Shown one piece after another: positions 51,356-64,000 of a stretch of 64,000 bases of DNA. The first letter of the stretch is position 1. The number at the start of each line of letters is the position of its first letter. Source of the DNA: Bradymonas sediminis (lineage in GTDB: Bacteria; Myxococcota_A; Bradymonadia; Bradymonadales; Bradymonadaceae); assembly GCF_003258315.1 (NCBI RefSeq), contig NZ_CP030032.1, forward strand, positions 1,030,001-1,094,000, in the 5' to 3' direction. The notes below the pieces were generated by a model. The model searched no databases. It was not told the DNA's origin and saw nothing but the letters and a program-made list of their open reading frames with translations. Both the position numbers and the translations under genes were made by a program.

Positions 51356-51616
51356 GCGCTTGAGGAATTCATTTATCTAGAAAGGGTTGGGGGAACCCCC
51401 GGCCAGCGGCATCGCGTGAGCCCCCGCGCTTGGCGTCCCTATAGCGCCGCAGGCGCTGACAAAGATAAACACAGCCATCGCTAACACGGCCTACGAAGAG
51501 CGCGCGGCATAGCTCTATCCCCGGAGTCCTGTCTCCATTTGTGAATCTGTGGAGGCGCCGATTTAGGAGGGGTATTGAGAGGGAAAAATTGAATTTCGCT
51601 CCAGTTAATCTGCGAC

Positions 51617-51645
51617 TTGCGAGGCCAGTATACAGTCTGTATACT
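51617..51645 (+). promoter_or_regulatory. Promoter with embedded TetR-type operator
   Basis: TTGCGA (51617-51622), a 17-nt spacer, TATACT (51640-51645). The inverted repeat GTATACA-gtc-TGTATAC (51628-51644) overlaps the -10 box, an arrangement typical of repression. Transcription would start near 51652, next to the ATG at 51653, so the mRNA may be leaderless. A second 7-N3-7 site lies at 59305-59321. Confidence 0.7.
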
Positions 51646-51652
51646 TGGTCGC

Positions 51653-53170
51653 ATGAAACGATATTTACTATGCCTGGTCCTGTATCTCTCTGCCTGCGCA
51701 AGCGGCTCGTTTTCGTCGTCGACGCTCGATGCGTCCGACGCCGAGGGTGCCTCCGACGCGGGCCAAATCGAGGCGTCGAGCGATGTTCTTGATGCCGAGA
51801 CACCAACGGATATATCGGACGCCGCGAGCCCGCCGCTGCCCGATGTCGAGGTCGACGCGCCGGGAGGTGGCGAGGGTGGCCCGGGCGACACAAACACCGA
51901 GCCCGCCAGCGTCTTCGAGGTGAGCGCGGTGAGCACCGTGGGTGAGCGTTTTATCTGCAAGATGATCAACGCGGAGCGCGTCGACAGCCCGACGGCCAAT
52001 CAAACCCACACCCGATTCAACCTGCGCGCGACCGATCTTGGCGCACCTGCGATTGTCGACGGGCGGCTGCACCTCTTCTTCGGTGACACGCATGGTTACC
52101 GCGATATCTGGCGAATCGGCGAGGACCCGGACTCGGTGGGACATGTTTCATTCGAGGCGGCGAAGGCCGATCTTTCGGTGCTGTGTCGGGACCTCGCCTT
52201 TTATGTGACCCCCGATGATCCGTCGGTCGCCCATCGCAGCGACCCCGCCATCCAGCGTGATTTTGAGGGTGGTTTTCTGGCGCCGCCGCCCGGCGAGCCG
52301 CTGTCGAATTATGTCACGCGGCGTTTGCTTGAGTCGGAGCATGGCGCGTTTGCAGGCTCCTTCGAGGTGCCGAGCGGGGCGATCACGACCGATTCAGGGA
52401 CCTATATCTTCTGGTCGGGGCGGGTGCGCGAAGAGGTCGAGTGGGAGATGTCGCGCGGGTTTGTTGCGCGCTGGAATTCTGCCGGGGCGTCGCCGCTGTT
52501 CTACCAAATTCTATACGCCGTTGATGACCTCATCGACGGCCGCGCGCTGGGCGGCCACTTTGTGCAAAACGCGCCGGTGGAGCACGACGGGCAGCTCTAC
52601 CTTTTTGGCACCGGGCGCTACCGCAAAGACGGCGTGCACCTGGCGCGCAAGCCGGTCACCGCGATCGAGCAGCCGGGCGGCTTTGAGATCTATAACCCGC
52701 AATCCAACACCTGGGTGGACCCGACCGCGCTCAGCGAGCCCGAGCGCGCGGCGCTCCCGGCGATCATCGACGAGTCGCACCGCGGCATCGGCGAGTTGGG
52801 CGTGCAATACGTCCCCGAGGCCGACCTCTTTGTGATGATGTTTCAGCAGATAAAAGGTTCCAATGCCATTCATCTGCTGGTGAGCCGCGAGCCCACCGGT
52901 CCCTGGCAGCGCACCCGCGTCATCGATATGTCGGACCCGCTCTTTCTCTCAAAGCACTGTTGCTCCGACTCCGGCGCCTGCCACGGCGACGCGATTTGGC
53001 GCTGCGCCGAAGCCGGACTCTACGCGCCATATCCGCTCCCGCTTATCCGCGCCGAGCAGCGCGGCGAGGACACCTGGCGTCTGTCGGTGCCCTACGTCGT
53101 CTCCACCTGGACTCCGTATAACGTGGTTCTTTTCGAGCACACCGTTGACGTCTCAATGACCCTTCAATGA
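51653..53170 (+). CDS. Lipoprotein with DUF4185-like beta-propeller fold
   Basis: A 505-residue lipoprotein: MKRYLLCLVLYLSAC gives the lipobox LSAC. Residues about 20-90 are an Asp/Ala/Ser/Pro-rich linker. The remainder resembles DUF4185/glycoside-hydrolase-like five-bladed propellers: LGAPAIVDGRLHLFFGDTHG, TTDSGTYIFWSG and HDGQLYLFGTGRYRKDGVHL, with a Cys cluster CCSDSGACHG. Substrate unknown. It heads a co-directional run of four genes to 57141 and sits behind the operator described above. Confidence 0.8.
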   Translation: MKRYLLCLVLYLSACASGSFSSSTLDASDAEGASDAGQIEASSDVLDAETPTDISDAASPPLPDVEVDAPGGGEGGPGDTNTEPASVFEVSAVSTVGERFICKMINAERVDSPTANQTHTRFNLRATDLGAPAIVDGRLHLFFGDTHGYRDIWRIGEDPDSVGHVSFEAAKADLSVLCRDLAFYVTPDDPSVAHRSDPAIQRDFEGGFLAPPPGEPLSNYVTRRLLESEHGAFAGSFEVPSGAITTDSGTYIFWSGRVREEVEWEMSRGFVARWNSAGASPLFYQILYAVDDLIDGRALGGHFVQNAPVEHDGQLYLFGTGRYRKDGVHLARKPVTAIEQPGGFEIYNPQSNTWVDPTALSEPERAALPAIIDESHRGIGELGVQYVPEADLFVMMFQQIKGSNAIHLLVSREPTGPWQRTRVIDMSDPLFLSKHCCSDSGACHGDAIWRCAEAGLYAPYPLPLIRAEQRGEDTWRLSVPYVVSTWTPYNVVLFEHTVDVSMTLQ

Positions 53171-53183
53171 CGAGAGGATTGTG

Positions 53184-54404
53184 ATGCTGAGTTATATTCG
53201 AGGACTATCGTTGCTCGCGCTGGCGATCGCCACGTTATTTGTCGGCTGCGGGGACGCGACCATGGTTTCGTCGCAGACCTCGGACGCGGCGGTGTCGGAC
53301 ACCGACGCTGATGCGTTCGGGTCGGACGCGGGGGATTTCCTCGACGCTGAGAACGCGCGGGATGCGGAGTTTGGGGAAGATGATGTCTACGTGCCAGACG
53401 ACGGCCACGATGACGGAGACGCCTTCGCCGCCGATGACGCCGGGGCGGGGGATGCGCCGGATGCGGCGAAGTGGCCGGACGTCACGGACGAGCCCGACTC
53501 CAGCCCGGACGTCGGTCTCCCGCCCCCGCCCACGCGCTTTGATTGCCCGGACGGCAGCACCGTCACGCCGGGGTGGAACACCGTTCAGGTTGGCGTGGAC
53601 CAGCGCCGCTATCATATCGATATGCCCGCGGATACCTCGCGACCCCCGGCGATTGTCTTTGGATTTCATGGGTTTACAGCGGTGATTCCGCCCGTGATTG
53701 ACCTGCTCAGTTTTCGCGCCGAGATGCTCGGCCTGGGACTTCATCCCAACGCGCGCGCCGGGTTTCCGTTCATCCTGGTCCTGATGCAGGATGTGAATCG
53801 CCTGCCACCCGGGGGACTCGATTGGGATCTGCGCACCGATAATCCGAACGTCGATCTTCCGTTCTTTGAGGCGGTCGTGGGTTGTCTGACCCAACACGCA
53901 AAGGCCGACGAAGACCGTGTTTTTGCGTTCGGGTTCAGCGCCGGTGCGACGATCGCGAACCTCATTCACTCCAAATACCCGGACGTGCTGCGCGCGTTTG
54001 TCACCGGGTCAGGGCTGTGGGCCAACGAGGCGAATAACCTGCGCATCGCCCATCAGGTCACGCTGGGTATTCCGATCGTGAATTGGCAGTGGCCGGCCCT
54101 GGAGCCCATTCACGCGGGGACGGCGGCGGTGATGCTGACCCGCGGCGGCCCCCACGATCTCATCCCAGGCTCGCCGGTGCCGGCGAGCCTGGATGAGGCG
54201 GGCGGCTTCGCCCGAGACGCGCTGTTGGCCAACGGGCGGGTCGTGGTCGATTGCTGGCATAACGGCGGGCACACGCTGCACCCGGAGGTGCGCGGTTCGT
54301 TGATGCTCAACTTCTTCGCTGCGCACGCCCACATCGGCCTTTCGCCGCTGCTCTACGAAGGCCTCCCAGGGCTGCCCGGGAGCTGCGCGATACTGAGACC
54401 CTGA
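53184..54404 (+). CDS. Secreted alpha/beta-hydrolase lipoprotein (LpqC/PHB-depolymerase-like), copy 1
   Basis: A 406-residue lipoprotein: LSLLALAIATLFVGC is the signal with lipobox FVGC, then a very acidic Asp/Ala-rich linker to about residue 120. The catalytic domain has the nucleophile elbow GFSAG (FGFSAGATIANLIHSKYPD), an oxyanion-type FGFHGF motif, and the C-terminal His in GGHTLHPEV. This is the layout of secreted esterases/depolymerases. A paralogue follows. ATG 53184 has AGAGG 5 nt upstream; the adjacent in-frame GTG 53181 is less likely. Confidence 0.88.
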   Translation: MLSYIRGLSLLALAIATLFVGCGDATMVSSQTSDAAVSDTDADAFGSDAGDFLDAENARDAEFGEDDVYVPDDGHDDGDAFAADDAGAGDAPDAAKWPDVTDEPDSSPDVGLPPPPTRFDCPDGSTVTPGWNTVQVGVDQRRYHIDMPADTSRPPAIVFGFHGFTAVIPPVIDLLSFRAEMLGLGLHPNARAGFPFILVLMQDVNRLPPGGLDWDLRTDNPNVDLPFFEAVVGCLTQHAKADEDRVFAFGFSAGATIANLIHSKYPDVLRAFVTGSGLWANEANNLRIAHQVTLGIPIVNWQWPALEPIHAGTAAVMLTRGGPHDLIPGSPVPASLDEAGGFARDALLANGRVVVDCWHNGGHTLHPEVRGSLMLNFFAAHAHIGLSPLLYEGLPGLPGSCAILRP

Positions 54405-54493
54405 GACGAGGTAATACCCATAAATTGTTTCTGAATGCTGGCTTCGCGCGCACGATGGTGCGTCACCATGACCTTGATATTGAGGAGAGAATC

Positions 54494-55663
54494 GTGAAAC
54501 GAGATATTATTCGAGGACTTTCGCTGCTCGCCCTGGCAAGCTCTACGCTGTTTTTCGGTTGCGCAGAGGACTTTTCTGAGTTCTCCGAAACCTCCGACGT
54601 GGCGGTCTCGGACACGGACGCGACGGACGCCGGTCGGGACACTGCGTCGCCGGATTCCGGTGATTTGCCCGACGCGCAGCAGGCGCCGGATAGTGGAGTT
54701 GATGCGGCCACGTCGCCCGACGCTGCCACGTCGCCCGATGCTGCCTCGGATCCGGATTCCGGGACCGGTGACCCGGGGACTCCCTCGACGCCCTACTTCG
54801 AGTGCCCAGACGGCACGACGGTAGGGCAGGGCTGGAACACGGTCGATGTCGCGGGCACCGAGCGCACCTATCATCTCGACTTGCCCGCAGACGCATCGGT
54901 CCCGCCGGCGATTGTCTTTGGTTTTCATGGCTTTAGCGGGCCAGGCTCGCCGAGGGATGACACCCATGGCTTCCGCCAGCATATGCTCAATATGGGGATT
55001 GAGCCGGACGCGCGCGCCGATCTTCCGTTCATCCTGGTGCTCATGGAAGACACAAATCTACAGCCGGTCGCTGGCCTGGACTGGGATATTCGCACCGATG
55101 ACCCCAACGTCGATCTTCCGTTTTTCGAGGCGGTCGTCGGCTGCCTCGTCGAGCATCAAGCGGCCGATGAGGGGCAAGTTTTTGCCTTTGGATTCAGCGC
55201 GGGCGCCACCATCGCAAATCTCATTCACTCCAAATATCCGGACCTTCTGCGAGCGTTTGTCAGTGAGTCCGGCTTGTGGGCGAATGAGGAGGAGAATCTG
55301 CGCATCGCGCTGCAGGCGACGCTCGGGTTTCCGGTGGTCGACTGGCAATGGCCCGAGATGGCGCCGATAGATGCGGGCTCTGCCGCGATTCTATTGTCGC
55401 GCGGGGGGCCGAATGATCTGGTCCCTGGAGCGCCAGGGCGCGCGAGCCTCGATGAGGCCGGCGAGTTTGCGCGGGACGCGCTGGTCGCCAACGGGCGGGT
55501 GGTGATTGATTGCTGGCATGACGGCGGGCACACGCTGCACCCGGAAGTCACCGGAGCGCTGATGCTCGACTTCTTCGCCGCGCACGCCGCCGCTGGCCCC
55601 TCGCCCTTGCTCACTGAGACGATTCCATCACTGCCTCAAAGCTGTACGATAGAGAGACCATGA
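54494..55663 (+). CDS. Secreted alpha/beta-hydrolase lipoprotein, copy 2
   Basis: A 389-residue paralogue of the preceding gene. It shares the signal (RGLSLLALASSTLFFGC), an acidic Asp/Ala/Ser/Pro linker, FGFHGF, GFSAGATIANLIHSKYPD and GGHTLHPEV. GTG 54494 is preferred because GGAG lies just upstream and it gives a signal like that of copy 1; an in-frame ATG at 54425 lies in copy-1 spacer. The linker differs most, the catalytic domain least. The gene overlaps the SDR gene by 4 nt (ATGA), so translation is coupled. Confidence 0.88.
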   Translation: MKRDIIRGLSLLALASSTLFFGCAEDFSEFSETSDVAVSDTDATDAGRDTASPDSGDLPDAQQAPDSGVDAATSPDAATSPDAASDPDSGTGDPGTPSTPYFECPDGTTVGQGWNTVDVAGTERTYHLDLPADASVPPAIVFGFHGFSGPGSPRDDTHGFRQHMLNMGIEPDARADLPFILVLMEDTNLQPVAGLDWDIRTDDPNVDLPFFEAVVGCLVEHQAADEGQVFAFGFSAGATIANLIHSKYPDLLRAFVSESGLWANEEENLRIALQATLGFPVVDWQWPEMAPIDAGSAAILLSRGGPNDLVPGAPGRASLDEAGEFARDALVANGRVVIDCWHDGGHTLHPEVTGALMLDFFAAHAAAGPSPLLTETIPSLPQSCTIERP

Positions 55664-57141
55664 AAAAGAGCCTGAAGAATCGACGTATTCTAATCACCGG
55701 GGCGGCGCGCGGCATCGGCGCCGCGCTCGCCGAGCGCCTCGCAAAGCAGGGCGCTCGGCTGGCGTTGATCGGCCTGGAACCCGAATTATTACAGGAGGTT
55801 GGGCGGCGTTGCGGCGCCGAATATATCGGAGAGTGCGATGTCGGCCAGCGCGCCTCGGTGGAGCGCGCCGTCGCCGCGGCCGTCGACGCGCTCGGCGGCC
55901 TCGACGTGGTCGTGGCAAACGCGGGCATCGCTGCCCAACTTCCGCTGATCGGCGGCGACCCCCAGGTCTTTGACACCGTGATGCGCGTCAACCTGCAGGG
56001 CACCTATGACACGCTCCGGGTGGCCGGGCCGCACGTGGCGCATCGCGACGGTTATATGCTGCTGGTGGCCTCTTTGGGCGCCGCGGTGCACGTGCCGCTG
56101 ATGGGCGCCTACTCAGCATCCAAAGCAGGAACCGAGGCGCTCGGAAACGCGCTGCGCGGCGAACTTGCGCCCACCGGCGCGCGAGTGGGGATCGCGTATT
56201 TCGCCGAGCTCGACACCGACATGACCCGCCGCGGCTTCGACACCCGCGCGGCGCGCGTCTTCGCCGGCACACCCCACGGCACGCTCACTGGTCTGGCCCC
56301 GCTGCAGCCCGCCATCGACGCGCTCGAGCAGGGGATCCGGCAGCGCTCACGCACCATAGCTTCGCCCTGGTGGGTCGGCCCGGCGCTGCCCGCGCGCGCG
56401 ATAGTCCAACGCGTCGTGGACCAGGTGGTGCGCAAAAAGATCGCCAAGGTCGTCGCGACCGCGCGCGGCGAGCGCTCAACCCTGACGACCTTGCAACCCG
56501 ACGGGGGGCAGTCCATCGACACGCTTGAGAGCGCGCGCGCGCCTGACGCTTCAGCAGCGCCGCCAACTTCTGATCTTGACGATTCGCAGGCCCAAGAGTC
56601 GACCCCGAGGCCACGCATCCACCCGGGCACGCCGCGCCAGCTCGGACCTATTAATGAGCTCATTTGCCGCGCCTTGGGCGTGGCGACCGGTACCGGCCGC
56701 CCGAATCTTTTCGCGACCCTGGGGCGCCACCGCAGATTATTTGGTCCGTGGCTTGTCTTTGCCGGCGCCTTGATGCCCTTCGGGAGGTTGCCGCGCAGCG
56801 AGACAGAAATGGTCATCCTGCGGGTTGCCCACCGCATGGACTGCGCCTACGAGTGGCAGCATCATGTCCGGATCGGGCAACGCTATGGGCTGACTCGGGA
56901 TGATATCGATGCCCTGCGCGAAGACACCTTGAGCGCGCGGCGATGGTCGCCCAGGCGCTACGCTATCCTGCGCGCGGTCGATGAGATTCACGACGCGCGC
57001 GCCCTGGGGTCTGCCACCTGGCGGGGGCTGCAAAAGGTCCTGACCGATGATGAAATCATCGAGCTCTGCATGCTTGTCGGACACTACCAAATGCTCGCCC
57101 AGACCATATCGACCCTTGCGATTGAACCCGACGAGCACTAG
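55660..57141 (+). CDS. Fusion of short-chain dehydrogenase (SDR) and carboxymuconolactone decarboxylase-like (CMD) domain
   Basis: A 493-residue protein. N-terminal SDR (1-about 290): cofactor loop TGAARGIG (13-20), NAG (87-89), catalytic S138, Y151 and K155 in YSASK. A Pro/Asp/Ser linker follows (about 295-330). The C-terminal CMD/AhpD-like domain (about 340-490) has LVFAGALMPFGRLPRSETEMVI and AHRMDCAYEWQHH, the CMD type without a CxxC pair. Both enzymes occur in ring and ester catabolism. The fusion is unusual in my reading. The start ATG overlaps the upstream stop. Confidence 0.9.
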   Translation: MKKSLKNRRILITGAARGIGAALAERLAKQGARLALIGLEPELLQEVGRRCGAEYIGECDVGQRASVERAVAAAVDALGGLDVVVANAGIAAQLPLIGGDPQVFDTVMRVNLQGTYDTLRVAGPHVAHRDGYMLLVASLGAAVHVPLMGAYSASKAGTEALGNALRGELAPTGARVGIAYFAELDTDMTRRGFDTRAARVFAGTPHGTLTGLAPLQPAIDALEQGIRQRSRTIASPWWVGPALPARAIVQRVVDQVVRKKIAKVVATARGERSTLTTLQPDGGQSIDTLESARAPDASAAPPTSDLDDSQAQESTPRPRIHPGTPRQLGPINELICRALGVATGTGRPNLFATLGRHRRLFGPWLVFAGALMPFGRLPRSETEMVILRVAHRMDCAYEWQHHVRIGQRYGLTRDDIDALREDTLSARRWSPRRYAILRAVDEIHDARALGSATWRGLQKVLTDDEIIELCMLVGHYQMLAQTISTLAIEPDEH

Positions 57142-57186
57142 AACCAAGGGCCTGCATATCCCACTTCCTGCGGCCCCAAATACTTC

Positions 57187-57810
57187 ATGAGTCGAACTTC
57201 CAGCGATAACTCGGAGCCTACCCGGGCTAAAATCCTCGCCGGTGCGATGAGCGTCTTCGCCGACCAGGGCACTCGTGTGCCGGTCCAACAGATCTTGGAG
57301 GGCGCGGACGTCTCGCGGCGCACGTTTTATCGGTTCTTTTCGAACCGCGAAGCCGTCATGCTCGCGCTCTACGAGTTCGGCACCGAGATGCTTCTGAAGA
57401 ACTGCCGCGCGTCGATCCAGCGCGCCGAGACCCCGGCCGAAGTCGTCGCCGGCTGCATCGACGCCCACCTCGCCGGGGTCAGCACCCTCGGTCGACTTGT
57501 TTATTTGCTCGGCGGCGAAGCTCAGAGCCCCGACTCTCCGCTCTACGCGCCGCGAATGCGCACCCACAAGGCGCTGGCCGAACTCGTCCGAGAAGCCCTG
57601 GCCGACGACCTGCCCGACACCTGCGACCCGCTGCTGGTGAGCAGCCTGCTCATCGCGCTTGAGTCCATCGCGCGCACGGTGCTGCAGGACGAGGGCCGCC
57701 GCGTCGAGGCCGAAATGGTCGAGCGCGCGCGCGCCGTGATGATGCGCCTGGCGACCGCCACGCTGCTCGCCCCGGCGGGCGGTGGCGTGACGCGGTTACC
57801 TGAGGAGTAA
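57187..57810 (+). CDS. TetR/AcrR family transcriptional regulator
   Basis: A 207-residue regulator. N-terminal HTH (about 13-58): RAKILAGAMSVFADQGTRVP and EGADVSRRTFYRFFSNREAV. The C-terminal ligand domain is helical and not classifiable. It lies between the hydrolase/SDR genes and the convergent monooxygenase, and is the best candidate to bind the 7-N3-7 inverted repeats before 51653 and 59277. The ligand is unknown. No copy of the repeat is seen before its own start. Confidence 0.93.
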   Translation: MSRTSSDNSEPTRAKILAGAMSVFADQGTRVPVQQILEGADVSRRTFYRFFSNREAVMLALYEFGTEMLLKNCRASIQRAETPAEVVAGCIDAHLAGVSTLGRLVYLLGGEAQSPDSPLYAPRMRTHKALAELVREALADDLPDTCDPLLVSSLLIALESIARTVLQDEGRRVEAEMVERARAVMMRLATATLLAPAGGGVTRLPEE

Positions 57811-57825
57811 GGGCGCCGCGGGCCG

Positions 57826-59277
57826 TCACTCAAATACCAACGCGCCATCACTCACCCGCGCGTAGCGAAATAGCGCGCGGTCGAGAAAGTAATTCTGATA
57901 GAGGCGCCACGGCAGCCGTTTACCCTGGGTGGGGAGTTTGCCCATGGCGCGTTGGATATAGCCCGATTTCAGGTCAATGAGGGGCTGTGGGATGTCTTCG
58001 TTCGGCGGCAATCGTGGGGTGCAGACCCGATGGTGATGCTCCTCCATATGCTTGAGCAGCCGACAGGTCCACTGGCTGATCAGCTCGCATTTTAGGGTCC
58101 ACGAGGCGTTGGTATAACCCAGCGAGATGACGGCGTTCGGCACACCGCTGAGCATCGCGCCCTTGTACATGGTGCGCTGGCCAGGGTCGACGGTTTGGCC
58201 GTCGACCTCGATGCGCGCGCCGCCGGCGACCTGGACCTCAAGCCCCGTGGCGCTGATGACAATATCGGCGTCGAGGTGCTCGCCGGAGCGAAGGGCGATG
58301 CCGGTCGGGGTGAATCGCTCGATATGGTCGGTGACCACCGAGGCATCGCCCCGGCGCAGCGCCTCGAAGAAGTCGCCGTCGGGCACGAAACACACCCGCT
58401 GGTCCCAGGGGTCATAGGCCGGGTTAAAGTGGGTGTCGACGTCGAGGATGTCTCCCACCGCTTTGCGCACCGGCTCGAGGATGAAGCGTCGGGCGCTCTT
58501 CGGCAGACGCTTGGCGTATTGGTAGAAGAGCATCATGCGCAGGATATTCTTCCATCGGGTCATATCGGCGCCGCGCGCGTCGCCCAAAAGGCGCGTCGCC
58601 CATTGGGAGAACACGTCGCGGTTGGGCACCGACATCACATAGCTCGGCGAGCGCTGGAGCATGGTGATATGGGCGGCGCGCTCGGCCATCGCGGGGAGCA
58701 AGGTGACCGCGGTCGCGCCGCTTCCGATGACGACGACGCGCTTGCCGTCGAAGTCGATATCTTCGGGCCAGCGCTGCGGGTGAATCAGCTCGCCGTCGAA
58801 TTGCTCAACCCCTTTAAAGTCGGGCATATAGCCGCGCTCGTAGCGATAATAACCCGTACAAAACCACACGAAATTACATGTGCGCGCCGACTCCTCGCCG
58901 GTGTCGGCGCAGCGCGAAATCACCGTCCAGCGCGCGTCTTCGGAGGACCAACGCACCGTCTCGACGCGCCGGTTATAGTGGATCTTTGAGGTCAATCCGC
59001 ACGCCTCAACCGTGTCATTTAAATACCGTAGGATTGACGGCCCGTCGGCGAGCGCCTGGGGGTTGGGCCAGGGGCGAAACGAGAAGCCGAGCGTGTGCAT
59101 ATCGGAGTCGGAGCGAATCCCCGGGTAGCGAAATAAATCCCAGGTGCCCCCGAGCGCAGCGCGACCCTCAAGGATTGCGAAGGACATGTCTGGGCATTCG
59201 GTCTGTACGTAGTGCCCGGCGCAGATCCCCGAGAGCCCGGCGCCGATGATAAGGATGTCCACGTGCGGTGTTGTCAT
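57826..59277 (-). CDS. Baeyer-Villiger-type FAD monooxygenase
   Basis: A 483-residue flavoprotein monooxygenase. FAD motif IIGAGLSGICAG (residues 10-17 region), BVMO fingerprint FDGELIHPQRWP (exact FxGxxxHxxxWP), NADPH motif GSGATAVTLLPA. It converts ketones to esters or lactones with O2 and NADPH. That fits the hydrolases and the SDR in the same island: an alcohol would be oxidised to a ketone by the SDR, turned into an ester by this enzyme, and hydrolysed by the secreted or another esterase. This chain is inference. Convergent with the TetR gene. Confidence 0.93.
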   Translation of the reverse strand: MTTPHVDILIIGAGLSGICAGHYVQTECPDMSFAILEGRAALGGTWDLFRYPGIRSDSDMHTLGFSFRPWPNPQALADGPSILRYLNDTVEACGLTSKIHYNRRVETVRWSSEDARWTVISRCADTGEESARTCNFVWFCTGYYRYERGYMPDFKGVEQFDGELIHPQRWPEDIDFDGKRVVVIGSGATAVTLLPAMAERAAHITMLQRSPSYVMSVPNRDVFSQWATRLLGDARGADMTRWKNILRMMLFYQYAKRLPKSARRFILEPVRKAVGDILDVDTHFNPAYDPWDQRVCFVPDGDFFEALRRGDASVVTDHIERFTPTGIALRSGEHLDADIVISATGLEVQVAGGARIEVDGQTVDPGQRTMYKGAMLSGVPNAVISLGYTNASWTLKCELISQWTCRLLKHMEEHHHRVCTPRLPPNEDIPQPLIDLKSGYIQRAMGKLPTQGKRLPWRLYQNYFLDRALFRYARVSDGALVFE

Positions 59278-59304
59278 GAGGAAAGCCTATTCTTTTTTAT
59301 GAGC

Positions 59305-59321
59305 TGATACAAGGTGTATAC
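59305..59321 (-). promoter_or_regulatory. Putative operator (7-N3-7 inverted repeat) before the monooxygenase gene
   Basis: TGATACA-agg-TGTATAC, the same 7-N3-7 layout and nearly the same arms as GTATACA-gtc-TGTATAC at 51628-51644. It lies 28 nt before the monooxygenase start codon. Arms differ in one position on the left arm. Confidence 0.7.
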
Positions 59322-59345
59322 ATGGCGCCTCGTGTGCCCCTAACA

Positions 59346-59522
59346 TCACCCCGCCGCAGAGCTCTCGCGAATAAGTGCGCGCGTCCGGCTCAGAAGATCT
59401 TCGACATTAGCGACCAGCGCGGTCTCTGACTTTCGACCGCCGCGAAGCTCCTCGATTTGCTGGTCGATCTTCTGGATTTCGGCGAGCACCGTTTGGGTGA
59501 CGAAGGTGCCGGTTTCAACAAC
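59346..59522 (-). pseudogene. Duplicated 3' end of the GTPase gene at 62674
   Basis: Minus-strand translation ends TQTVLAEIQKIDQQIEELRG then GRKSETALVANVEDLLSRTR, ending SAAG-stop, closely matching the C-terminus of the gene at 62674-64000. The likeness starts at TGTFVTQTV and nothing before it matches, so it is a fragment without a start and not expected to be expressed. Both copies are in direct orientation. Confidence 0.88.
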
Positions 59523-59788
59523 ATTTCGCCGAGAGACCGAGGAGGTCAATACGCCGTCAAACACACGCCATCGGGAGAAGTCCACAAGGGCAGCAAGGGA
59601 GGAAAGACCGGCTGTGGGATGGATACCAGAAAGCATCCATCGCATTGGGTCAATTCGCATACGAAGATTGCTTTTTTGTTTTGCTTCGGTTGCGCCTAAG
59701 TCGCCGTGCTTGTAATTTACTCTTACGCGCTTCCGAGCCGCAAATTCGGGGAAGTAATCACTTCAGGTCGCCCTCGAGCAGTCACCTC
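59523..59788. other. Junction between GTPase-tail fragment and inserted segment
   Basis: Non-coding as far as I can tell. It is the left border of the segment enclosed by the duplicated GTPase tails. It is slightly AT-richer than surroundings from 59660. Confidence 0.45.
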
Positions 59789-61018
59789 ATGTCTCAAACG
59801 TCCCACAAATCAAATTTCGCCTTCCTCGCCGAGCACGACGAGCGACTCGCTAAGATCGGCTACGAGGCCGAGCAACTCGCCAGCATCAGCCCGACCGCGT
59901 GCATGATGCAGATTCGCATGCTCGCCGAATTGCTCGCCAAAGAGACCGCGGCGTATGTGGGGATTTATCTGGACGAAGGTGTTTCGTTTTACCAGATGCT
60001 CGTGCGATTGGAGCGGGAATCGGCGTTCCAAGACGATATCAAGGACCTGTTCCACGAGGTTCGCATGAACGCCAACGACGTGGTCCACGGCGAGGTGTTT
60101 TTGGATAACGCGAAGGGCGTGGCGACCAATTATTTGCGGCTGACCCGCAAGATCGCCATCTGGTTTCATCGCTCGTTTGGGCGCGACGGCAAATTTACTG
60201 CGGGTCCGTTCGTCGAGCCGCCGGACCTGAGCGCGCAGCGCCAGCAGGTCTTGAGTGAGAATCGCAACCTGCAGGCGGCCATCGATGACGCCCAAAAGGC
60301 TGTCATCGACGCCAACGAGCGCGCGCTGCGTGAAAAACACCGCCGCGCCGAGGCCGAAGATCTGCTCGACCAACTCCGCGAGGAGCGAAATGTCTTCCAG
60401 GCGCTCGCCGAGGAGTACGAGGCGCGTCTGGTCGGGCTGCAGTCGCAGACCGAAGCGGCCAGCGGCGAGCAGCGGGTCGAGCGCGAATCGCGCATGCGCC
60501 AGGCGAGTGAGAATTTCGAGCTCGATGAGCAGGAGACCCGCGCGATCATCGACGCCCAGCTTCGCCAACGCGGCTGGCGCGCCGACACAGACGAGCTTCG
60601 CTGGGCCAGCGGCGCGCGCCCCGAAGAGGGCAAACAACTCGCCATCGCCGAGGTGCCCACGGCCGCTGGCCCCGCCGATTATGTGCTCTTCGACGGACTG
60701 ACGCCGGTCGCCATCGTCGAGGCCAAGCGCTGGGATCAGCCCATCCAGGGCGGCATCGAGCAGGCGAAGCGCTGCAGCCGCGCCTGGGACCTCGCTGACT
60801 ACGCGCCGCCGTCGCCAAGCCCCTGGGCCATCGACGGTCTTGAGTACGAGATTCCGTTCGTCTTCGCGTCGAACGGTCGCGAGTACCTTCACCAGTTCAA
60901 GGCGCATCGAGGTATCTGGTTTCAGGATCTTCGCCGCGATACGAACCGTGCGCGTCCGCTGGCCCGCTGGATCACGCCGGACGGGCTGCGTCTGAGGCTA
61001 GATGGAGATGTCGATTAA
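59789..61018 (+). CDS. Helicase-less HsdR-like protein (DUF4145 + PD-(D/E)xK domain)
   Basis: A 409-residue protein. DUF4145-like N-terminus (about 30-125: MQIRMLAELLAKETAAYVGI, RMNANDVVHG). A charged coiled coil follows (about 150-240, NERALREKHRRAEAEDLLDQ). Then an HsdR N-terminal nuclease domain (about 245-400): LDEQETRAIIDAQLRQRGW, ADYVLFDG, and the catalytic E-A-K in VEAKRW, with FASNGREYLHQF. The chain stops after ITPDGLRLRLDGDVD, just where full-length type I/III-like enzymes continue into the helicase. So it is either a truncated gene or a stand-alone nuclease. ATG 59789 is chosen. Confidence 0.82.
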   Translation: MSQTSHKSNFAFLAEHDERLAKIGYEAEQLASISPTACMMQIRMLAELLAKETAAYVGIYLDEGVSFYQMLVRLERESAFQDDIKDLFHEVRMNANDVVHGEVFLDNAKGVATNYLRLTRKIAIWFHRSFGRDGKFTAGPFVEPPDLSAQRQQVLSENRNLQAAIDDAQKAVIDANERALREKHRRAEAEDLLDQLREERNVFQALAEEYEARLVGLQSQTEAASGEQRVERESRMRQASENFELDEQETRAIIDAQLRQRGWRADTDELRWASGARPEEGKQLAIAEVPTAAGPADYVLFDGLTPVAIVEAKRWDQPIQGGIEQAKRCSRAWDLADYAPPSPSPWAIDGLEYEIPFVFASNGREYLHQFKAHRGIWFQDLRRDTNRARPLARWITPDGLRLRLDGDVD

Positions 61019-62673: not shown

Positions 62674-64000
62674 TCAACCCGCCGCAGAAATCTCCCGAAT
62701 AAGCCCGCGGGTGCGGCTCAGAAGATCTTCAACGTTGGCGACCAGCGCATTCTCTGACTTTCGACCGCCGCGAAGCTCCTCGATTTGCTGGTCGATCTTC
62801 TGGATTTCGGCGAGCACTGTTTGGGTGACGAAGGTGCCGGTTTGGGCGTCGAAGTGCATCTCGAGTTCATCGGCGGCGTCGTTAAATCCGCTGCGCACAC
62901 CCTGGCGAAGTTGCTTGAGTTCGGTCTCTTGTTTGGCGGCCTGGAAGTCGGCGAAGGCCTGCGCGCCCATGCTCACCAGCGGGCCCGCGACCGTCAGGAC
63001 CTTGCCGGCGGTGCCGAGGCGTTTGCTCCACTGCACCAGCTCCATGGGCTTAAATTTATAGCCGAGCTTCTCGCCGACAAACTTCACGGTGTCCTGGAGC
63101 TGGTTGCCCGAGGCGTCGCCCGGTTTGAGAGGTTTGGGCGCGCCCTTGGCGTTGGCCGGTGTTTGTGCGACCAGCCAGTTGCCGAAGGAGCCGAGCTGGT
63201 CGCCCGCGTTTGTGATGCGATTGAGCAGGGCGGGGTCGATGGTGTCGAGGCCGACGTTCTGGTCGAGCTCGCTCACCGCGCGCGCGATGACCGCCTTGCT
63301 GAAGTTGCTATTGGCCAGTTGAGCCAGGTCGCCTTCGAGTGACTCGAGCGCTTCGCCGAGCGTCTGCTGCAGGTCGGCGGCCAGCTTATCGCTGCGTGTT
63401 TCGACCGATGCCTCCGCGCTCGACAGCTTCTCTTTGACCTCCTTTGCGTCGCCGCTCATGGTCAATTGGCTGGCCATTTGGGTGCCGGTCTGGCGGATGT
63501 CGGAGGCCGCCTCGCGCACCTGCGCGCGCGCCTGCTGTTCGATTCGCAGCTTGCCGTCGACCAGGCGTTTTCGCCGCTGCAAGAGCATCTCTTCGAGGCC
63601 CGAGACGGTCGGGTCGTCGGTGCTCAAGGCGGCGCGTGTCTTCAGCAGGGCGTGCTGAAGTTGGTGCAAGGCCGAGGTATATTGACCGGCCAATTTTCGT
63701 TGGCTGATAAACGCGTCAAGCTGGGCGTGAAAGCCCTCGAAATTGCTGTCTTCCCAGTCGAAGCTGGCGAGCTCCTCGTCGGCCTCGGCCTGGGCCGATA
63801 TGGCGAGTTCGGCGGCGACAAAGGCGACCGGAATATCGTCCGTCGAGTAGGGCGCGAGCACCTCGTTGAGCTCGCCCAGGACAACCTCGCGCGCCTCGGG
63901 GACGTTGCCAAGCGCGTGGCGGTCCATTTTATTGACCACCAACATCATCTTATGGGCCTTTTCTTGCTCGATGGCGAGCTTGCGGAAATTCTGGGCGATA
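62674..64000 (-). CDS. Dynamin-like/large GTPase, C-terminal part (runs off right edge)
   Basis: At least 442 codons are visible; the 5' end lies beyond the window. Reading leftwards from the edge: IAQNFRKLAIEQEKAHKMML, then VVNKMD, the G4 GTPase motif (NKxD), and a long helical region with coiled coils and no clear transmembrane segment. It ends NALVANVEDLLSRTRGLIRE-ISAAG. The N-terminal G1-G3 motifs are missing from view. Dynamin-superfamily membership is inferred from the GTPase motif followed by long helices. The 3' end is duplicated at 59346-59522. Confidence 0.8.
   Translation of the reverse strand, partial: IAQNFRKLAIEQEKAHKMMLVVNKMDRHALGNVPEAREVVLGELNEVLAPYSTDDIPVAFVAAELAISAQAEADEELASFDWEDSNFEGFHAQLDAFISQRKLAGQYTSALHQLQHALLKTRAALSTDDPTVSGLEEMLLQRRKRLVDGKLRIEQQARAQVREAASDIRQTGTQMASQLTMSGDAKEVKEKLSSAEASVETRSDKLAADLQQTLGEALESLEGDLAQLANSNFSKAVIARAVSELDQNVGLDTIDPALLNRITNAGDQLGSFGNWLVAQTPANAKGAPKPLKPGDASGNQLQDTVKFVGEKLGYKFKPMELVQWSKRLGTAGKVLTVAGPLVSMGAQAFADFQAAKQETELKQLRQGVRSGFNDAADELEMHFDAQTGTFVTQTVLAEIQKIDQQIEELRGGRKSENALVANVEDLLSRTRGLIREISAAG

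What the first reader, a model, noticed from the sequence alone, without database searches (positions are those of the whole stretch)
51617..59321. One predicted TetR regulon: matching 7-N3-7 operators flank an island with esterases, SDR-CMD fusion and a BVMO
GTATACA-gtc-TGTATAC at 51628-51644 and TGATACA-agg-TGTATAC at 59305-59321 are the only such 17-bp repeats I noticed. They sit just before the first and last genes of an island whose middle holds a TetR gene. The gene content (BVMO, SDR, CMD, two secreted hydrolases, a surface propeller) fits uptake and oxidation of a ketone or ester substrate. One repeat overlaps a -10 box, which fits repression.
Basis: partly seen in the sequence, partly recalled or inferred. 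Interest (0 to 1): 0.75.

Follow-up and report, generated by a model that had tools for sequence, protein, structure and literature searches.

The report
Repressor switch for wall-digesting enzymes
Two matching DNA sites and one TetR-type repressor appear to control a small gene set led by an enzyme predicted to cut the arabinan of mycobacteria-type cell walls, and the same switch sits in front of similar wall- and fat-digesting genes in other Myxococcota.

Summary
GTATACAgtcTGTATAC (51628) is the only exact copy in the 5.05-Mb genome. Only three sites have two or fewer mismatches, and two of them front the island's two transcription units. Across whole genomes the motif is enriched only where this TetR clade occurs (65 sites vs 11 control; genomes without it 45 vs 52). 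O1 fills the spacer and -10 box of a promoter (TTGCGA-17-TATACT).
The proposed biology needs revising. The first gene is a DUF4185/GH183 endo-D-arabinanase with all three essential carboxylates, and its model's best PDB matches are D-arabinanases. In the TetR's closest clade, matching operators front DUF4185, LGFP-repeat/C39-peptidase, lipase and PAE-esterase-SDR-CMD genes. Best reading: a derepressible regulon for digesting arabinan- and lipid-rich (mycolata-type) envelopes and oxidising the released lipids. Repressor-operator part about 0.85; substrate about 0.45. No experiment was run.

The parts
51628..51644 (+). Operator O1, GTATACA-gtc-TGTATAC, a perfect 7-N3-7 palindrome
   Evidence: only exact copy in the 5.05-Mb genome
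51617..51645 (+). Promoter of the plus-strand operon: -35 TTGCGA, 17-bp spacer, -10 TATACT; O1 covers 12 bp of the spacer and 5 of 6 bases of the -10 box; ATG 7 nt after the -10 box (near-leaderless transcript predicted)
   Evidence: only sigma70-like match in 51400-59500; shuffles give 1.4 on average, so the match alone is not significant; same layout at homologous promoters
51653..53170 (+). Lipoprotein with DUF4185/GH183 domain, predicted endo-D-arabinanase (D128, D145, E381 = EndoMA1 D33, D51, E243); only DUF4185 gene in this genome
   Evidence: PMC10115798, PMC10509167
53184..54404 (+). Lipoprotein alpha/beta-hydrolase 1, PHB-depolymerase/esterase-like (GFSAG nucleophile elbow; alternative start 53181)
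   Evidence: weak, below curated cut-offs
54494..55663 (+). Lipoprotein alpha/beta-hydrolase 2, paralogue of hydrolase 1 (61% identity)
55660..57141 (+). SDR-CMD fusion; in genome G372 the two halves are adjacent separate genes (60% and 49% identity)
57187..57810 (+). TetR-family repressor (207 aa), last gene of the operon, so autoregulated if O1 is its operator
57826..59277 (-). Flavin monooxygenase with type I BVMO fingerprint (FDGELIHPQRWP), convergent with the operon
59305..59321 (-). Operator O2, TGATACA-agg-TGTATAC (2 mismatches to O1), 27 bp 5' of the BVMO start codon

Best explanation
The TetR protein (57187-57810) is most likely a self-regulating repressor that binds GTATACA-N3-TGTATAC. 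At O1 it lies over the -35/-10 spacer and the -10 box and blocks RNA polymerase. That silences the operon DUF4185-hydrolase-hydrolase-SDR/CMD-tetR, and O2 silences the BVMO gene. An inducer, most likely an acyl-CoA or other lipid breakdown product, releases TetR. The genes then supply a secreted endo-D-arabinanase, two lipoprotein esterases and cytoplasmic oxidative enzymes (SDR-CMD, BVMO-like). The probable job is to open and digest envelopes that carry D-arabinan and ester-linked lipids (mycolata-type prey or debris) and to oxidise the lipids. Shown by computation: the sites, promoter overlap at O1, TetR-operator association across genomes, GH183 active site, conserved target genes. Inferred: repression, inducer, substrate and predation role.
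For: (1) Rarity and placement. (2) TetR-operator link: 16 of 37 homologues with profile score 150 or more have a site with 2 or fewer mismatches within 500 bp, 19 sites against 0.025 expected; more distant homologues 1 of 60. All 8 members of the window's own TetR clade (SH-aLRT 99) have operator-like sites at or near the TetR locus (in one of them, G114, only a 3-mismatch site). (3) Motif (2 or fewer mismatches) in 20 TetR-bearing genomes 65 vs 11 for the reversed pattern; in 20 genomes, mostly same family, without this TetR 45 vs 52 (Fisher p 9e-8). (4) Regulon content: DUF4185 with operators in G370 and L034 near TetR and in G372 on another contig; SDR plus CMD behind operators twice in G372; BVMO behind an exact operator in G336 on a different contig from TetR and behind a 2-mismatch operator in G025. 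(5) Promoter layout: -35 TTG at -9 to -12 of the operator in 13 of 27 promoters, 2.06 expected, 3' half-site = -10 box. (6) DUF4185: model's best PDB hits are EndoMA1 and M. tuberculosis AraH2; catalytic Asp columns align, the D51N entry showing the second one. (7) TetR model closest to EthR2, BkaR, FadR, FasR, KstR2, several of which sense acyl-CoA or lipid ligands.
Against: No binding, expression or enzyme data. O2 has 2 mismatches and no clear -10 box was found at the BVMO promoter. BVMO relatives are common (113 of 361 genomes), and none of the 29 other BVMO loci examined carries an operator, so BVMO membership rests on three genomes. The LGFP repeats that make the mycolata link strong elsewhere are absent from this genome, as is GH172 exo-D-arabinofuranosidase. 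Reported Bradymonas prey preference is Bacteroidetes and others, not mycolata (PMC7460792). Hydrolase annotations are weak. D-arabinan also occurs in some LPS and in Pseudomonas PA7 pili (PMC10115798).
Confidence: 0.7

Rival explanations
1. Same TetR-operator regulon, but the physiological substrate is ordinary lipid, polyester or ketone: esterases feed SDR and BVMO, and the DUF4185 protein acts on some non-mycolata glycan.
For: Sister TetRs with the same operator front acyl-CoA dehydrogenase, thiolase/FabG-type and nitronate-monooxygenase genes, so lipid catabolism is the common theme; no LGFP or GH172 in this genome; hydrolases resemble PHB depolymerases and Bradymonas stores PHA during predation (PMC7460792).
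Against: The lead gene is a catalytically complete GH183 enzyme, and the nearest TetR clade repeatedly pairs it or LGFP-C39 wall modules with the operator.
Confidence: 0.35
2. The palindromes are real operators but bound by another regulator, not the TetR inside the island.
For: The genome has other TetR-type candidates (19 first-look candidates); no binding data.
Against: The motif tracks homologues of exactly this TetR over many genera, adjacent to the tetR gene itself, and is not enriched in related genomes lacking it.
Confidence: 0.08
3. Chance: TATAC-rich palindromes that mimic -10 boxes, with no shared regulator.
For: At 3 mismatches the genome count does not exceed background; the third best site (C1:5042823) looks like background.
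Confidence: 0.03
4. Detoxification or resistance module like EthR-EthA: TetR with a BVMO that oxidises xenobiotics.
For: TetR next to a BVMO, and EthR2 is the top structural neighbour of the TetR.
Against: Most conserved targets are secreted hydrolases, not the BVMO; structural neighbours of TetRs are weak evidence (about 20% identity).
Confidence: 0.06

Closest known systems
TetR/FadR-type acyl-CoA-responsive repressors (B. subtilis FadR, M. tuberculosis FasR, KstR2, BkaR, EthR2)
   Same: TetR fold, short palindromic operators at promoters, lipid-metabolism targets; model matches these folds
   Different: Only about 16-23% identity; operator GTATACAN3TGTATAC is not one I know for any of them (from memory), and a text search for TetR papers with this half-site and a palindrome gave only two unrelated papers; targets include a glycan-cleaving enzyme
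D-arabinan utilisation loci with GH183 (Microbacterium arabinogalactanolyticum, Dysgonomonas gadei; PMC10509167, PMC10115798)
   Same: DUF4185/GH183 endo-D-arabinanase as the key secreted enzyme
   Different: No GH172/GH116 or transporter in the island; combined with esterases and oxidoreductases; TetR-controlled; Myxococcota
Mycobacteriophage endolysins with LGFP and C39-like modules (PMC3314691)
   Same: Operator-controlled LGFP + Peptidase_C39_2 proteins in sister genomes use the same modules
   Different: Bacterial lipoproteins in a regulon; LGFP modules are absent from the window's own genome
EthR-EthA (TetR-BVMO) of M. tuberculosis
   Same: TetR controlling a BVMO
   Different: Different gene order; here the BVMO is a peripheral member

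Membership tests
TetR family repressor with local regulon | TetR_N DNA-binding domain and all-helical TetR fold | tested here: met
   Pfam PF00440 E 2e-9; model pLDDT 87.5, PDB TetR hits
TetR family repressor with local regulon | Palindromic operator at own and target promoters, conserved with the regulator | tested here: met
TetR family repressor with local regulon | Binding and ligand-released repression | not testable with these tools
   needs gel shift and expression assays
GH183 (DUF4185) endo-D-arabinanase | DUF4185 domain | tested here: met
   PF13810 E 1.8e-28, 100 bits vs cut-off 39.5
GH183 (DUF4185) endo-D-arabinanase | Catalytic Asp pair and third carboxylate (EndoMA1 D33, D51, E243) | tested here: met
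   D128, D145, E381 invariant in 7 homologues and aligned to EndoMA1; essential residues from PMC10509167
GH183 (DUF4185) endo-D-arabinanase | Fold like EndoMA1/AraH2 (5-bladed propeller) | tested here: met
   Foldseek ranks 1, 2 and 4, E 1e-16 to 2e-9; model only moderate (mean pLDDT 70)
GH183 (DUF4185) endo-D-arabinanase | Activity on arabinogalactan or lipoarabinomannan | not testable with these tools
   shown by others for an M. xanthus member (PMC10115798)
Type I BVMO | FxGxxxHxxxWP fingerprint and two GxGxxG/A motifs | tested here: met
   FDGELIHPQRWP, GAGLSGI, GSGATAV read in the translation; best PDB matches OTEMO and steroid monooxygenase over the first ~220 residues only
Type I BVMO | Baeyer-Villiger activity | not testable with these tools
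   shorter (483 aa) than classical BVMOs of about 540 aa
D-arabinan utilisation locus (GH183 + GH172 + GH116) | GH172 exo-D-arabinofuranosidase in the genome | tested here: not met
   PF11175 absent from G000, present in G372

The most novel reading that the evidence does not exclude
A dispersed, TetR-controlled regulon of predatory Myxococcota dedicated to dismantling mycolata (mycolic-acid/arabinogalactan) envelopes: GH183 endo-D-arabinanase, LGFP-targeted peptidases and esterases, lipases, then SDR/CMD/BVMO oxidation of released mycolates, read out through a single 17-bp operator that predicts further wall-active enzymes.
Probability: 0.4. Interest if true: 0.75.

Novelty: new member of a known kind. 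Interest (0 to 1): 0.58.

Why it matters
It gives a regulator, an operator sequence and a defined gene set for how some Myxococcota may digest arabinan- and lipid-rich cell walls. The operator works as a search tool: it already picks out GH183, LGFP-C39 and esterase genes on other contigs. The genes are concrete candidates for enzymes active on mycobacterial arabinogalactan and mycolate esters. It also gives the two orphan fusion/oxidase genes (SDR-CMD, BVMO-like) a testable context.

Tried and rejected
Text searches for a known TetR with this half-site gave nothing relevant. AlmR/almA as the known relative (Alcanivorax homologues appeared): the Pseudomonas/Alcanivorax homologues mostly lack the operator (1 of 60 more distant homologues), and the AlmR/almA papers found were not opened, so the idea was dropped. 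BVMO as the defining target: rejected, because the family is widespread without the operator. DUF4185 against phages gave no match; against plasmids only a weak Nocardia match. PDB phmmer with the single DUF4185 sequence found nothing; the alignment profile and the fold search did. Third genomic site (5042823, between hemW and a PPR-repeat gene): treated as probable background, since the reversed-pattern control also gives 1 site. The -35 offset test was set after looking at the sequences, so its p-value is only indicative.

Full report
OBSERVATION. Both palindromes are present as described. The window lies in a complete 5.05-Mb genome (G000:C1:1030001-1094000). A genome scan found one exact GTATACAN3TGTATAC (51628), three sites with two or fewer mismatches, and 19 with three or fewer, against 34 for the reversed pattern. 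So the motif is rare and meaningful at 0-2 mismatches and is noise at 3. Two of the three best sites are the pair in question; the third (5042823) is probably background. The chance that either of the other two best sites falls within 8 kb of the exact one is about 0.6%, before counting that both sit at promoters.

ANATOMY. Plus-strand operon: DUF4185 lipoprotein (51653), two paralogous lipoprotein alpha/beta-hydrolases (53184, 54494; 61% identity), SDR-CMD fusion (55660), TetR (57187). Gaps are at most about 90 bp, and no convincing terminator stands out (6 terminator-like sites against 5.7 in shuffles). The BVMO-like gene (59277-57826, minus strand) converges on tetR. O1 lies inside TTGCGA-17-TATACT and its 3' half supplies the -10 box; the ATG is 7 nt further. 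O2 is 27 bp 5' of the BVMO start, and no clear -10 box was identified there.

IS THE TETR THE PARTNER? I took TetR homologues without looking at operators and scanned 500 bp on each side. Of 37 homologues with profile score 150 or more, 16 carry a site with two or fewer mismatches (19 sites; 0.025 expected from dinucleotide shuffles). Of 60 more distant ones, nearly all Pseudomonas/Alcanivorax, 1 does. In 20 whole genomes with this TetR clade the motif occurs 65 times against 11 for the control pattern; in 20 genomes, mostly of the window's family, without it, 45 against 52. The window TetR falls in a supported clade of eight (SH-aLRT 99): the window, G114, G372, G334, G370 and three named MAGs (L034, L036, L037). 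Operator-like sites occur at or near the TetR locus in all eight; in G114 the only site is a 3-mismatch one, and in G334 it lies about 2.5 kb from tetR, at an LGFP-C39 gene.

WHAT ELSE DO THE OPERATORS CONTROL? In that clade the operator sits directly 5' of: DUF4185 (L034, G370, and G372 on another contig, the last 50% identical to the window protein); LGFP-repeat proteins, several joined to a Peptidase_C39_2 domain (L034, L036, L037, G334, G370); class-2 lipase-like hydrolases (L034, L036); and, in G372, two operons of PAE-type esterase (one with LGFP), SDR (60-61% identity) and CMD (40-49%). There the window's SDR-CMD fusion appears as two adjacent genes, which explains the fusion. BVMO relatives carry an operator in G336 (exact, on a different contig from tetR) and G025, but the BVMO family is common and usually lacks it. 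More distant TetRs with the same motif front acyl-CoA dehydrogenase, SDR, nitronate-monooxygenase and GDSL-lipase genes. Lipid use is thus the general theme of the clade; wall attack is the theme of the window's own branch.

PROMOTER LOGIC. Across 27 operator-gene pairs the 3' half-site usually supplies TATACn at the -10 position, and a TTG occurs 9-12 bp 5' of the operator in 13, against 2.06 expected (offset chosen after inspection). Many start codons lie about 7-12 nt after the operator, which suggests direct occlusion of polymerase and very short leaders. This is inference from sequence.

THE LEAD ENZYME. DUF4185 is GH183, a family of retaining endo-D-arabinanases acting on mycobacterial arabinogalactan and lipoarabinomannan, including a tested Myxococcus xanthus member (PMC10115798). 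The window protein keeps all three essential carboxylates: D128, D145 and E381 correspond to EndoMA1 D33, D51 and E243, and the D51N crystal entry shows the N at the D145 column. Its predicted model, though only moderate in confidence, matches EndoMA1 and M. tuberculosis AraH2 best among named enzymes in the PDB. It is the only DUF4185 gene in the genome. LGFP repeats are proposed wall anchors of Corynebacterium and occur in mycobacteriophage endolysins, which also use C39-like peptidase modules (PMC3314691). LGFP is rare in the phylum (16 of 379 genomes) yet present in three of the five sampled genomes of this TetR clade, in each on the same contig as tetR (Fisher p 6e-4).

MECHANISM, WITH STATUS. 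Operator pair and promoter overlap at O1: shown. TetR as the binder: strongly supported by comparison, not shown. Repression and autoregulation: inferred. Inducer an acyl-CoA or lipid: inferred from fold neighbours (FadR, FasR, KstR2, BkaR, EthR2) and target genes. Function as digestion of D-arabinan- and lipid-bearing envelopes: inferred, about 0.45. Against it: no LGFP and no GH172 in this genome, and the known prey preference of Bradymonas is Bacteroidetes and others (PMC7460792). That the window is from Bradymonas or a close relative is my own guess from genome size and Myxococcota kinship; it was not established here.

VERDICT. As a system it is a new member of the TetR repressor-operator kind. 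Its interest lies in the conserved, unexpected target set.

Noticed in passing
G000:C1 about 5042930-5044339 (L003:1604-3017, L030): A bacterial gene with many plant-like pentatricopeptide (PPR) repeats ('PNVITYNSLIKAFGDAGQPERAWQ'), divergent from hemW; rare in bacteria. The third-best operator-like site lies in its 5' region.
   Followed up: no
window 59346-59660 (-) and 62674-63948 (-): The short ORF repeats the C-terminal ~55 residues of the 424-aa protein (TGTFVTQTVLAEIQKIDQQIEELRGGRKSE...), so it looks like a duplicated gene remnant beside O2.
   Followed up: no
window 59789-61018 (+): Protein with DUF4145 and HSDR_N (type I restriction R-subunit N-terminal) matches, standing alone.
   Followed up: no
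L022, L025, L028, L153, L154, L155, L163: Sister TetRs with the same operator front or neighbour acyl-CoA dehydrogenase, FabG-like SDR, thiolase and nitronate monooxygenase genes: a probable beta-oxidation regulon sharing the operator.
   Followed up: partly
L212 (G372:C66): Second TetR (44% identity) next to an alpha/beta-hydrolase and a second DUF4185 gene, without a good operator match: possible duplicated and diverged copy of the module.
   Followed up: partly
L147/L167 (G161:C591): Two strong operators (0 and 1 mismatch) in the intergenic region between a TetR gene and a dihydroxy-acid-dehydratase-like gene.
   Followed up: no
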